In this document: positions 53,743 to 57,340 of the stretch, in pieces
Layout of the letters: each line of letters starts with the position of its first letter
Position numbering within the stretch: the first letter of the stretch is position 1
From: Candidatus Brocadia pituitae
Lineage (GTDB): Bacteria > Planctomycetota > Brocadiia > Brocadiales > Brocadiaceae
NCBI GenBank assembly: GCA_017347445.1
Contig: AP021856.1
Coordinates: forward strand, 2,922,613-2,986,612
Reading direction: 5' to 3'
DNA length: 64,000 nucleotides
Notes under the pieces: generated by a model
What the model was told of the DNA's origin: nothing
Seen by the model: the letters and a program-made list of their open reading frames with translations, nothing else
Databases searched by the model: none
Program-made: the position numbers and the translations under genes

Positions 53743-56700
53743 CTACGGAGAATAGAGTGCACCGGTATTCAATTCATATCCACTATAAACGGTAGCACCT
53801 CCACCCCAAACAATCATCTGCGTGCCCGTCCACACCGCCGTGTGATAGAGTCGAGCACTTGGTGCGCCTGCCAGAGCTGTGGTCGTCCATGTGTTTGTCG
53901 CCGGGCTGTAGCGTCCACCATCACCATAAAATTCCCCCCATGCAATTTCATCGTAATAAATTCCTCCACCCCAAACAATCATCTGCATTCCCGTCCACAC
54001 CGCCGTGTGTTCAAATCTGGCACTGGGTGCACCTGTCTCGGTTGTGGGCATCCACATATTCGTTGCCGGGTTGTAACGCGCTCCATTATTCAAATAAAAT
54101 GAGTAATCTTCATAACGACCAAGACTAAGACTATAAATATCGGTTTGGATGCCGCCCCAGATAATCATCTGTGTACCCGTCCACACCACCGTGTGTCTGT
54201 CTCGAGCGTAAGTGTCGTCTATCGTGGCTGCCGTGGACATCCATGTATTAGTCGCCGGGCTGTAACGTCCACCGGTGTTAAGAGAATAAGCTCTGAATTC
54301 GTAAACATCATACTCCTCATAATAATTAGTATACTCATATACCCCCCCCCAGACAATCATCTCCGTACCCGTCCACACCGCCGTGTGATAGTATCGAGCG
54401 CTGGGTGCGCCTGTCGTGGCTGTGGCCGTCCATGTATTTGTCGCCGGATTGTAACGTCCACCCGTGTTGAGAACCACACTATAATCTTCGTACCCCCCCC
54501 ACACGATCATCTCCGTGCCCGTCCATACCGCTGTGTGCTTGGTTCTAGCGCTGGGTGCGTCTGCCAGGGTTGTGGACATCCATGTGTTTGTCGCCGGGTT
54601 GTAGCGTCCACCCGTGTTATATCCACCTCCCCAGACAATTATCTGCGTGCCCGTCCACACCGCCGTGTGTTCAAATCTGGCGCTAGGTGCACTTATCGTA
54701 GTTGTGGGTATCCATGAGTTTGTCACCGGGTTGTAACGTCCACCAGTGTTGAGAACCACACTATAACTTTCGTACCCCCCCCAGACAATCATCTGCGTGC
54801 CCGTCCATACCGCCGTGTGCTTAGTTCTAGCGCTGGGTGCGCCTGCCAGGGCTGTGGACGTCCATGAGTTTGTCGCCGGGTTGTAGCGTCCACCCGTGTT
54901 GAAATGACTCGTACTCGTATTATTCGTTCCACCCCAGACAATCATCTGTGTGCCCGTCCATACCGCCGTGTGAGTGTTTCTAGCACTGGGTGCGCCTGTC
55001 GTGGCTGTGGCCATCCACGTATTTGTCGCCGGGTTGTAACGTCCGCCCGTGTTATATCCACCTCCCCAGACAATCAACTGCGTGCCCGTCCACACCGCCG
55101 TGTGATTGGTTCTAGCGCTGGGTGCGCCTGCCAGAGCTGTGGTCGTCCATGTGTTTGTCGATGGGTTGTAACGTCCACCGGTATTGACAGAACCAGTAGT
55201 AATACTATTGTATCCACCCCAGACAATCACCTGCGTACCCGTCCATACCATCGTATGAAGGTATCGGGCAGTGGGTGCACCTGTCGTGGCTGTGGATGTC
55301 CATGTGTTTGTCGCCGGGTTATAACGTCCTCCCGTGTTGAGGAAACCATTCTTATCGTGTCCCCCCCAGACAATCATCTCCATGCACGTCCATACCGCCG
55401 TGTGGTATGCACGGGCGCCAGGTGCGCCTGTCGTGGCTGTGGCCGTCCATGAGTTTGTCGCCGGGTTGTAACGTCCACCGGTGTTGAGGTACAAACTAGT
55501 ACCGTACCCCCCCCAGACAATCATCTGCGTGCCCGTCCATACTGCTGCGTGCAGGTGTCTGGCATTGGGGGTATCTGTCGTGGCGGTGGGTGTCCATGTA
55601 TTTGTTGTCGGGTTGTAACGCCCACCCGTGTTGAAATAACTTATACCATTCGATCCCCCCCACACGATCATCTCCGTACCCGTCCATACCGTCGTGTGGT
55701 ATGCACGGGCGCTAGGTGCACCTGTTGTGGCGGTGAGCCTCCATGTGTTTGTTGCGGGGTTGTAACGTCCACCGGTATTGACATAACCACTAACACTAAT
55801 CCCTCCCCAGACAATCATCTCTGTGCCCGTCCATGCTGCCGTGTGATGGTATCGGACAGTAGGGGCATAATTAACAGCCGTCGGTGACCAGGTATTGGGT
55901 GCATATGACAGGGGAAGCAAGGAGGATCCCGCTGCAATTTCAGGTAAATTGTAGGTATATACCCCGGCTTCCACCTCAGGGGCAAACCGCTCACCCACCC
56001 GTGACCACCACGCATCAAACCCGACCTTCCTCCATTCCACCACGGCCACCTTCAACCGATCCTTCCCCTTCCTCAATACCTCCATGACATAAAACCGTTC
56101 CTCATCTTCTTGCAACTCACTTACACGCCTGAGAGGTATCTTCTCTTTCTCTACTCCAAATGCCTTTGCCAACCTTCCTATCGCATCCTGCCACTCATCC
56201 TCAGAGAGTTTCAGGACGTCTCCACTTCTGTTTTCCCTTCCGTCATCTTCTGAATTTTTTCCCGCATCTCCGGATGAGGGGTCCCCGCCCTTACCACTCC
56301 CTTTCCTCCATTCCACCTCACGGTACTCACCACCTATCCCCTTCATGTCCTCTGTTCTGCCCTGTTGTCCCACCTTCCTCATTATACGCTTCTTCAGTCT
56401 CCCGTGAAACCGTTCATCAAAGGCATACCAGTCGTGTACAAGCCGTTCCACGAGCGTCTGTCTGGCCAGGACCTCCGCTACCAACTGCGGGTCATTCCCC
56501 AGTGCAGACCAGAGTTCCCGCAACATCTCGGGATTCCGGGTGGTCTCTGCCATCCGCTCCATCTCCGCCTGGAGCTGATACCCCTTAACCGGCTGCCGCC
56601 AGATAACCTCCAGCGCCTTTGACATCCTCAGCGTCTCCCCAACCTTCTTTCTCACTTCCTCTTCAGACATTACCTCGTTCAACGGTGGCTTTGGAGATGT

Positions 56701-56892
56701 ATTCGCCTCCGGCCACAGGGTATGTTTCCAGTACACCTCCTCTATGGCCCGCTGGCATGCCACCCGCGACTCAATGCCCATGTCTGCGTTTGCCCGTCCT
56801 GTCTGCCCTATCAGGACACAAACAGAGAAAACCACCGACAGGCCGATCATCCACCAACGGCATCCAACAACTTCCCTTACTGTTCGACGCAT
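53743..56892 (-). CDS. Exported Kelch-type beta-propeller protein, 14 repeats
   Basis: A signal peptide (residues about 12-37 from ATG 56892, IGLSVVFSVCVLIG...ANA) marks export. Residues about 40-330 are helical and unrelated to the repeats. From about 340 to the end come about 14 tandem repeats of roughly 50 residues, each with HTAVWTGTEMIVWGG, a variable loop, NTGGRYNPATNTW and TATTGAPSAR. The pattern (GG, then Y and W) is Kelch-like and predicts two beta-propellers on the cell surface. The repeats are very similar at the DNA level, so the gene is prone to slippage or homogenisation. I chose ATG 56892 (GAGAGGAG before it) over TTG 56916. The function is probably binding or adhesion. Confidence 0.88.
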   Translation of the reverse strand: MRRTVREVVGCRWWMIGLSVVFSVCVLIGQTGRANADMGIESRVACQRAIEEVYWKHTLWPEANTSPKPPLNEVMSEEEVRKKVGETLRMSKALEVIWRQPVKGYQLQAEMERMAETTRNPEMLRELWSALGNDPQLVAEVLARQTLVERLVHDWYAFDERFHGRLKKRIMRKVGQQGRTEDMKGIGGEYREVEWRKGSGKGGDPSSGDAGKNSEDDGRENRSGDVLKLSEDEWQDAIGRLAKAFGVEKEKIPLRRVSELQEDEERFYVMEVLRKGKDRLKVAVVEWRKVGFDAWWSRVGERFAPEVEAGVYTYNLPEIAAGSSLLPLSYAPNTWSPTAVNYAPTVRYHHTAAWTGTEMIVWGGISVSGYVNTGGRYNPATNTWRLTATTGAPSARAYHTTVWTGTEMIVWGGSNGISYFNTGGRYNPTTNTWTPTATTDTPNARHLHAAVWTGTQMIVWGGYGTSLYLNTGGRYNPATNSWTATATTGAPGARAYHTAVWTCMEMIVWGGHDKNGFLNTGGRYNPATNTWTSTATTGAPTARYLHTMVWTGTQVIVWGGYNSITTGSVNTGGRYNPSTNTWTTTALAGAPSARTNHTAVWTGTQLIVWGGGYNTGGRYNPATNTWMATATTGAPSARNTHTAVWTGTQMIVWGGTNNTSTSHFNTGGRYNPATNSWTSTALAGAPSARTKHTAVWTGTQMIVWGGYESYSVVLNTGGRYNPVTNSWIPTTTISAPSARFEHTAVWTGTQIIVWGGGYNTGGRYNPATNTWMSTTLADAPSARTKHTAVWTGTEMIVWGGYEDYSVVLNTGGRYNPATNTWTATATTGAPSARYYHTAVWTGTEMIVWGGVYEYTNYYEEYDVYEFRAYSLNTGGRYSPATNTWMSTAATIDDTYARDRHTVVWTGTQMIIWGGIQTDIYSLSLGRYEDYSFYLNNGARYNPATNMWMPTTETGAPSARFEHTAVWTGMQMIVWGGGIYYDEIAWGEFYGDGGRYSPATNTWTTTALAGAPSARLYHTAVWTGTQMIVWGGGATVYSGYELNTGALYSP

Positions 56893-57259
56893 CTTGCTCC
56901 TCTCTCCCTGGTACAAAACAAGTCCGTTACATCGTGAAAAACGCTCCCCACGACTTTCTCACCTTAATTCCTGGCCGTATCCGTACAAGCGCGGTTACAA
57001 AACAAAAAAACCTTACAGCACAATATATCTTTCAACAACATCTCTGACAGTAGGGCTATCTTTTTATAAGCCGTTCTAACGGTTTAAGCGGTTTAAACTG
57101 TTTAATCGGCTCACAAGACCCTTTTCCTTTACGTCACCTGATCACTCAGGTTTTGCCCTTCTCATGACGTGTCTTTTTTACTCAACATACATAATTTGAA
57201 ATTTAATATCAACGGTATTTTAAAAAGTTTCATAATACTTTAGCTTTTTGAGAAACACC

Positions 57260-57340
57260 TTTCTCTGATAGGGGTAGGGAAGGCTTTCACCTCCCCTCCC
57301 TCCGAACCGTACAGGCGGGTCTCCCGCATACGGTTCCCCA
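57260..57340 (-). ncRNA. Group II intron 3' end remnant (domain V-like)
   Basis: The minus strand carries a 33-base hairpin GAACCGTATGCGGGAGACCC...GCCTGTACGGTTC, the shape of bacterial group II intron domain V. It is preceded by GGGG, then followed by GGAGGGAGGGGAGGTG and a polypyrimidine end ACCCCTATCAG that resembles the class C 3' end. No complete reverse transcriptase is found upstream, so only the 3' end survives. It is a relic rather than a functional intron. Confidence 0.6.

What the first reader, a model, noticed from the sequence alone, without database searches (positions are those of the whole stretch)
53743..56892. Homogenised 14-repeat Kelch-like surface protein
Repeats of about 50 residues are so similar in DNA that slippage or gene conversion is probable. 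Repeat-number variation could change adhesion or self-recognition.
Basis: partly seen in the sequence, partly recalled or inferred. Interest (0 to 1): 0.5.

Follow-up and report, generated by a model that had tools for sequence, protein, structure and literature searches.

The report
Kelch propeller gene behind c-di-GMP riboswitch
A probable anammox bacterium carries a gene for an apparently exported protein of fourteen similar Kelch repeats, likely two seven-bladed propellers, and in relatives this gene sits behind an RNA switch for a biofilm signal, one of dozens of such switches in these genomes.

Summary
The array is real: ATG at 56892, stop at 53743, 1049 codons, 14 Kelch repeats 44-64 residues apart. 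A seven-repeat stretch models confidently as one complete propeller, so 14 probably means two. Repeats are moderately alike in DNA (core 67-89%, mean 78%; longest exact match 40 bp; mean synonymous difference 44%), not near-identical. The window's repeats group together in a tree, and five related genes have 13, 14, 9, 3 and 14 repeats, so the array turns over between species. Strain-level change could not be tested.

The more informative feature lies outside the given interval. A c-di-GMP-I riboswitch (57043-57167, minus strand) precedes the gene, as in six of eight other Brocadiaceae loci scanned; the two without are gene fragments. In those six the aptamer shares a strand with a strong terminator, which predicts an ON switch. 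The window's copy looks eroded: ligand-pairing C is U, terminator -5.4 against -21 to -29 kcal/mol in relatives. The genome holds 44 such riboswitches over Rfam's cut-off; 11 genomes of its genus have 18-55, some ahead of surface or matrix genes.

Verdict: the kelch protein is a new member of a known kind. The riboswitch expansion is the interesting part; nine text searches showed no report of it.

The parts
53743..56892 (-). Coding sequence of the 14-repeat Kelch protein, 1049 aa, ATG to TAG
56785..56892 (-). Signal-peptide-like N-terminus (residues 1-36; cleavage after ANA is my guess)
   Evidence: sequence; home-made hydrophobicity test flags it, no dedicated predictor was available
55897..56784 (-). 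N-terminal domain of about 300 aa, conserved in relatives, no family match
   Evidence: alignment of 7; no significant match
54871..55893 (-). Repeats 1-7 with closing strand; modelled as one complete propeller
53746..54870 (-). Repeats 8-14; second propeller by inference, not modelled on its own
   Evidence: inference
57043..57167 (-). c-di-GMP-I riboswitch aptamer (RF01051), 37.3 bits against a gathering score of 35; 150 bases before the ATG
57047..57047 (-). U in place of the ligand-pairing C found at the other readable sites
   Evidence: that this column is the ligand-pairing C rests on recalled numbering and on PMC9262584 passages
57004..57055 (-). Remnant of the shared-strand terminator: weak hairpin (57011-57055) and seven T (57004-57010)
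   Evidence: the pattern scan finds no terminator here
57184..57212 (-). Promoter-like TTGATA-17-TATGTT just before the aptamer
   Evidence: 2 such sites in the region against 0.8 in shuffles, so weak

Best explanation
The gene encodes a probably exported protein: signal-peptide-like start, an uncharacterised domain of about 300 residues, and 14 Kelch repeats that most likely fold as two seven-bladed propellers. The scaffold is constant; variation sits in the loop after WGG and in the two residues of ARxxH, which suggests a frame presenting variable loops that bind partners or matrix (inferred). In Brocadiaceae relatives the gene belongs to a large c-di-GMP regulon run by RNA. Without ligand the aptamer's 3' P3 strand (GCCUUACUGCC) pairs with downstream GCAGUAAGGC or close variants to form a terminator; with c-di-GMP the aptamer holds that strand and transcription goes on. 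High c-di-GMP thus turns on the kelch gene with other surface and matrix genes. Shown by computation: array, one-propeller model, riboswitches, shared-strand terminators and their recurrence. Inferred: second propeller, ligand, ON logic, export, binding function. In the window's own genome the switch looks degraded, so the gene is probably expressed without this control. Repeat number changes between species by slow duplication and loss.
For: Kelch families and PDB kelch chains. Propeller model pLDDT 92.7, pTM 0.90, overlaid on galactose oxidase over model residues 1-341 (318 aligned, rmsd 2.5, Z 32.1). Riboswitch ahead of the window gene and in six of eight other Brocadiaceae loci (51.8-65.5 bits). 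Terminators sharing the aptamer strand at -21.3 to -29.3 kcal/mol in those six. In this genome 31 of 46 sites have a terminator of -14.3 or lower, 30 with the 5' arm starting inside the aptamer match; 0 of 460 random 140-mers from the window reach -14. PMC9262584 (passages) describes the pilM riboswitch as an ON switch whose terminator sequesters the C that pairs with its ligand. Variable sites: for ARxxH, for the loop. N-terminal parts of window and AMX1 genes differ at 0.15 of non-synonymous against 0.51 of synonymous sites, which fits a protein kept by selection.
Against: The full-length model failed (pLDDT 39.9); two propellers are inferred from one. The seven-repeat alignment mixes overlapping stretches of the same genes, not all in register. 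Counts of 13, 9 and 3 repeats do not fit multiples of seven. No cell-wall anchor was identified, the N-terminal domain is unknown, and my signal-peptide test is crude (23 of 46 riboswitch genes against 12 of 41 other window genes). The window's riboswitch scores only 37.3 bits and two of its pairs are non-standard. 15 of 46 sites in this genome, the kelch site among them, lack a strong terminator; four of these show one beyond a long insert, so weak terminators are not unique to the kelch gene. No riboswitch was found in L026 and L027 (fragments) or in the Acidobacteriota locus L031. No binding or expression data.
Confidence: 0.6

Rival explanations
1. A phase-variable or strain-variable adhesin: the repeats recombine often, and repeat number tunes adhesion or self-recognition.
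For: Repeat number differs between species, 3 to 14; the window's repeats group together; exact repeats up to 40 bp here and up to 63 and 62 bp in AMX1 and G009 could serve recombination.
Against: Mean synonymous difference 0.44, lowest 0.24, among the window's repeats, nearly that of a species split (0.51); 14 repeats recur in three of six countable genes. No strain data.
Confidence: 0.15
2. A secreted enzyme: a galactose-oxidase-like or mutarotase-like propeller acting on matrix sugars, with an isomerase-like N-terminal part.
For: Best structural neighbours of the propeller in the second look are galactose oxidases; weak NCBIfam matches to YjhT mutarotase and N-acetylneuraminate epimerase (45 and 40 bits against cut-offs of 256 and 416); one of seven N-terminal members gives a PPIC rotamase hit at E=0.11.
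Against: All these family matches are below cut-off; a shared fold shows no activity; repeat number from 3 to 14 is unusual for an enzyme; the kelch part holds a single cysteine, residue 503. The copper site was not tested.
Confidence: 0.13
3. The window's riboswitch is not decayed but re-tuned: U in place of the ligand-pairing C could favour another cyclic dinucleotide, or the switch could act on translation.
For: Helix P2 keeps its pairing by a two-sided change (ACCUGA/UCAGGU against CCCUGA/UCAGGG in several relatives) and keeps its GUGA loop; the gene stays open. Natural variants of this class that sense c-AMP-GMP through a pocket change exist (PMC9481103, passage).
Against: The terminator is weak (-5.4), two aptamer pairs are non-standard and the score is near the cut-off. 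The known c-AMP-GMP change is, as I recall, at the other ligand position, which is G here.
Confidence: 0.12

Closest known systems
Kelch beta-propeller proteins (Pfam PF24681, PF01344, PF13415; galactose oxidase propeller; KLHL, Keap1 and LZTR1 kelch domains)
   Same: Kelch motif over gathering score, PDB kelch chains by sequence and by fold.
   Different: 14 highly regular repeats, probably two propellers, an unknown N-terminal domain, and repeat number that varies between relatives.
c-di-GMP-I (GEMM-I) riboswitches, RF01051 and RF03167
   Same: Over gathering score in the window and at 44 sites of its genome; GNRA-type loop at 45 of 46 sites, one not matched by my pattern.
   Different: 18-55 per genome in 11 genomes of the genus, against 17 GEMM-I riboswitches reported for Geobacter sulfurreducens (PMC8835794, passage). 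The window's kelch copy alone has U at the ligand-pairing position among the readable sites.
pilM riboswitch of Geobacter metallireducens (PMC9262584, passages)
   Same: Described as a transcriptional ON switch whose terminator takes up the C that pairs with the ligand; the relatives' kelch leaders have the same layout.
   Different: pilM senses c-GAMP; here 43 of 46 sites have G and 3 have A at the first ligand position (one misreading corrected by eye; position recalled).
c-di-GMP riboswitches ahead of surface genes elsewhere
   Same: Class II riboswitch doublets and triplets mostly ahead of a putative surface anchor protein in Paraclostridium (PMC9481103, passage); riboswitch-regulated type IV pili in Clostridium difficile (reference title seen).
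   Different: Class II in the first; other gene types; no kelch protein in the passages I saw.

Membership tests
Kelch beta-propeller | Kelch motif repeats recognised by curated models | tested here: met
   Pfam kelch models over cut-off, e.g. PF01344 91.3 bits against 20.1
Kelch beta-propeller | Repeats close into a propeller | tested here: met
   Repeats 1-7: pLDDT 92.7, pTM 0.90; Z 32.1 to galactose oxidase over residues 1-341. Only this half was modelled well; predicted, not solved
Two seven-bladed propellers | Both halves fold as separate seven-bladed domains | tested here: inconclusive
   Full-length model failed; second half not modelled alone
Galactose oxidase (AA5) | Copper site with Cys-Tyr cofactor | not tested
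   Fold similarity only; one cysteine in the kelch part
c-di-GMP-I riboswitch | Covariance model over gathering score | tested here: met
   37.3 against 35 bits in the window; 51.8-65.5 in six relatives
c-di-GMP-I riboswitch | Ligand-pairing C at the 3' side of P3 | tested here: not met
   Window has U (position 57047); C in the six relatives and at the other readable sites; the role of this column is recalled
c-di-GMP-I riboswitch | Binds c-di-GMP | not testable with these tools
   Needs binding assay
Transcriptional ON switch | Strong terminator that excludes the aptamer | tested here: not met
   Window -5.4 kcal/mol; six relatives -21.3 to -29.3, which do meet it
Variable-number repeat adhesin | Repeat number differs among strains of one species | not testable with these tools
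Exported or surface protein | Signal peptide and surface location | tested here: inconclusive
   Home-made signal test positive; location not testable

The most novel reading that the evidence does not exclude
Anammox bacteria of the genus Brocadia run much of their surface and matrix programme through RNA: 18-55 c-di-GMP-I riboswitches per genome, most in the window's genome with the same ON-switch platform and with only 4 PilZ matches beside them, and the kelch propeller protein is one output. In the window's species this one switch has drifted out of the regulon, by decay or by changed ligand preference, leaving its target uncoupled from c-di-GMP.
Probability: 0.5. Interest if true: 0.65.

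Novelty: new member of a known kind. Interest (0 to 1): 0.42.

Why it matters
Anammox granulation matters for wastewater treatment, and a review says that higher c-di-GMP goes with more matrix in aerobic and anammox granular sludge (PMC11224092, passages). A sequence-defined list of switches with a common expression platform would give testable targets for that link in organisms which, the same review says, have no pure culture. The kelch gene itself is of ordinary interest: a regular repeat protein whose repeat number changes between species. The eroded switch in this genome beside six intact-looking ones in relatives is a natural comparison for what the switch does.

Tried and rejected
Full-length AlphaFold2 from four sequences failed (pLDDT 39.9) and I drew nothing from it. 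The N-terminal domain matched no solved structure up to E=1, no Pfam family significantly (best 0.048) and no NCBIfam family up to E=1; my memory of SurA-like proteins stayed a lead. A recent seven-repeat duplication was rejected: in the window matrix no repeats i and i+7 are each other's best match (repeat 3 is closest to 10, but 10 is closest to 6). Synteny: none of six neighbouring window proteins matched loci L021-L032 at E 1e-10; the neighbourhood is not shared in those stretches. A link between the riboswitch and the group II intron domain V upstream (57268-57338) was dropped: no such match in the six relatives' loci scanned, and 140 bases there are 91% identical to another place in the genome, so it looks like an intron remnant. 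Plasmid search gave 6 records, all under 60% identity.

Literature: nine searches of open-licence PMC text; I saw listings and opened passages of six papers (PMC11224092, PMC9262584, PMC9481103, PMC8835794, PMC7266159, PMC12530212). The last has c-di-GMP riboswitches in a denitrifying bacterium and anammox only in a reference title. By their listings the others did not look like reports of riboswitches or kelch proteins in anammox bacteria; I did not open them all.

Scripts: the first terminator script was misled by T-runs in loops and replaced. One search missed terminators beyond long P3 inserts (L048, L050, L057, L087, seen) and probably that of L082, whose arms read by eye carry a matching two-sided change, so 31 of 46 is a floor. 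The pattern misread L070 (G, not T) and left ten ligand-pairing positions blank: four I read by eye as C (L052, L060, L082, L086), five as C beyond long inserts (L048, L050, L057, L079, L087); L051 shares the 3' part of L050. One search had a wrong offset and was replaced. The phylum-wide count scored at most 14 candidates per genome, so it is a floor for Brocadia; one search scored at most 61.

A second half-model of the protein, the Acidobacteriota spread and strain variation were not reached.

Full report
What is there. On the minus strand, 53743-56892, lies one open frame of 1049 codons, with ATG at 56892 after GGGAGAGAGGAGCAAG. It begins with a signal-peptide-like stretch (home-made test), continues with about 300 residues that match no family significantly, and ends in 14 Kelch repeats.

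How alike the repeats are. On a 41-codon core of 13 complete repeats (repeat 14 is cut short and left out) DNA identity is 67-89%, mean 77.6%, and synonymous difference per site averages 0.44, lowest 0.24; with codons redrawn from the gene's usage it would be 0.77. The longest exact direct repeats are two of 40 bp, and 13 pairs reach 25 bp. Between the N-terminal parts of this gene and its relative in Brocadia sp. AMX1 the synonymous difference is 0.51. The repeats share descent and turn over, but slowly.

Relatives. A protein search of 59 genomes, the window's own among them, matched 8 at E<=0.001, 5 of them in the 11 genomes of its genus; two of the eight (G012, G025) match at only 29-30%. 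Repeat counts are 14 (window), 13 (AMX1), 14 (G009), 9 (G026, N-terminal part in another frame), 3 (carolinensis) and 14 (an Acidobacteriota MAG, L031, 51% identity). G004 is split over contig ends, with two and three repeats on either side, and cannot be counted. Partial copies lie at two further places in G004 and one in G009. Repeats from 8 gene pieces (65 rows) group by gene: 13 label changes against 41.7 shuffled. The window's, G009's and the Acidobacteriota repeats group well (2, 1 and 1 changes); AMX1's do not (8 against 11.3) and G026's only partly (4 against 7.7). The tree rests on 123 columns and 2 of 62 inner branches are firm.

Fold. Full length failed. Repeats 1-7, with 22 seven-repeat stretches from the window gene and two relatives, gave pLDDT 92.7 and pTM 0.90; the stretches overlap and are not all in register. 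Foldseek's best rows are kelch domains. In the second look the model overlays galactose oxidase over model residues 1-341 (318 aligned, rmsd 2.5, Z 32.1). Galactose oxidase has seven blades (recalled), so seven repeats make one complete propeller and 14 most simply make two (inferred). In the core alignment the two residues in ARxxH vary most (2.8 bits each in the window gene), while R, H, both W of the first part, GG and Y do not vary there; the loop after WGG varies in length and sequence. That these lie on one face, as in Keap1, is recalled and not measured.

The switch upstream. Rfam finds a c-di-GMP-I riboswitch at 57043-57167 (37.3 bits, cut-off 35), 150 bases before the ATG. Of nine loci scanned, six of the eight Brocadiaceae loci have one before the kelch copy (L021, L022, L023, L024, L025, L028; 51.8-65.5 bits); L026 and L027, which hold fragments, have none, and neither has the Acidobacteriota L031. 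L025 precedes a broken copy. L029, the other end of the split G004 gene, was not scanned. The riboswitch thus looks like an old part of this gene's leader in Brocadiaceae.

How it would work. In the six relatives GCCUUACUGCC (a variant in none of its bases), the 3' strand of aptamer helix P3 plus the ligand-pairing C, can also pair with GCAGUAAGGC or close variants before a T-run, at -21.3 to -29.3 kcal/mol. Aptamer and terminator exclude one another, so ligand should turn the gene on. The pilM riboswitch is described in the same terms (PMC9262584, passages). In the window this has eroded: CUGCC became CUGUC, the terminator pairs poorly (-5.4), and two aptamer pairs are non-standard. Helix P2 keeps pairing by a two-sided change. 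The gene itself stays open, with fewer non-synonymous than synonymous differences from AMX1 in its N-terminal part (0.15 against 0.51), so the protein seems kept while this control weakens.

The regulon. The window's genome has 50 riboswitch matches at E<=1, 44 over the cut-off; at E<=1 four of 14 control genomes also ring, none over the cut-off. Eleven genomes of the genus have 18-55 at E<=1e-4, 22 others of the family 1-25, 26 others of the order 0-10, and the 14 controls none. Among 294 genomes of the phylum those outside the family had at most 5. I fetched 46 sites: the 44 over the cut-off and the next two; four weaker ones were left out. 31 of 46 have a terminator of -14.3 or lower, 30 with the 5' arm starting inside the aptamer match, against 0 of 460 random 140-mers from the window. 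Of the other 15, four show the same hairpin beyond a long insert, the kelch site is one, and several (L061, L069-L071) have another 3' end without it. 43 of 46 have G at the first ligand position and three have A (L045, L077, L087) (L070 corrected by eye; position recalled). At the ligand-pairing C the kelch leader alone has U: 36 sites read by script, nine more by eye.

What the switches precede. The first downstream frame was chosen by script. Of 43 proteins scanned (L051 and L069 repeat a neighbour's gene, and the kelch gene was scanned), 13 carry surface, envelope or polysaccharide families: PKD and Ig-like domains, laminin-G, autotransporter, pseudopilin, glycosyltransferases, a polysaccharide synthesis protein, amidase, trypsin-like, caspase with PEGA. 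Two are sigma-54 activators, two transposases, and 14 have no match at E<=0.001. The signal test gave 23 of 46 against 12 of 41 other window genes, which is weak. The genome has 16 GGDEF, 6 EAL and 4 PilZ matches, so it can make the signal, and RNA receptors outnumber PilZ ones; other protein receptors were not searched.

What is known. Kelch propellers and c-di-GMP-I riboswitches are well known. Nine searches of open PMC text showed no report of these riboswitches, or of kelch proteins, in anammox bacteria (listings, with passages of six papers). G. sulfurreducens is reported to have 17 GEMM-I riboswitches (PMC8835794, passage), so Brocadia's numbers are high, but I cannot say they are a record.

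Verdict. The best-supported mechanism is an exported two-propeller binding protein that in relatives is switched on by c-di-GMP through RNA, with that control decayed in this genome.

Noticed in passing
window 57268-57338 (minus strand): Group II intron domain V (RF00029, 51.2 bits) about 100 bases upstream of the riboswitch, with no intron protein evident beside it; 140 bases here are 91% identical to G000:C1:2396759-2396899, and the genome has 7 such domains over the cut-off. Probably an intron remnant.
   Followed up: partly
G000:C1 around 2195100-2195293 (L069, L070): Two c-di-GMP-I riboswitches in tandem, without the shared terminator, ahead of a very large laminin-G-domain protein; a close relative with a single riboswitch lies at 2295159 (L071).
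   Followed up: no
L048, L050, L051, L057, L087 (G000:C1): Riboswitches whose P3 loop holds long inserts; L048, L051 and L087 share a dispersed sequence (ACGCTAAGGTC.CAAAGA...) inside it, and L050 and L051 seem to be two 5' halves before one 3' half.
   Followed up: partly
L045, L077, L087 (G000:C1): Three riboswitches have A instead of G at the first ligand position, the kind of change linked to c-AMP-GMP sensing (position recalled).
   Followed up: no
G004:C2 end and G004:C3 start (L024, L029): An assembly of a related genome breaks inside the kelch repeats, so repeat counts from such assemblies need care.
   Followed up: no
L031 (JAUQQC010000001.1, Acidobacteriota MAG): A 14-repeat relative at 51% identity with the same N-terminal domain and no riboswitch found in the locus: transfer between phyla or a misbinned contig.
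   Followed up: no
window 57233-57272 (minus strand): About 40 bases just after the intron remnant recur at several places in the genome at 88-97% identity, a small dispersed repeat.
   Followed up: no
L046 and L056 (G000:C1:328048 and 1057106): Transposase genes are the first sizeable frame after two riboswitches, so insertions may have disrupted these outputs.
   Followed up: no
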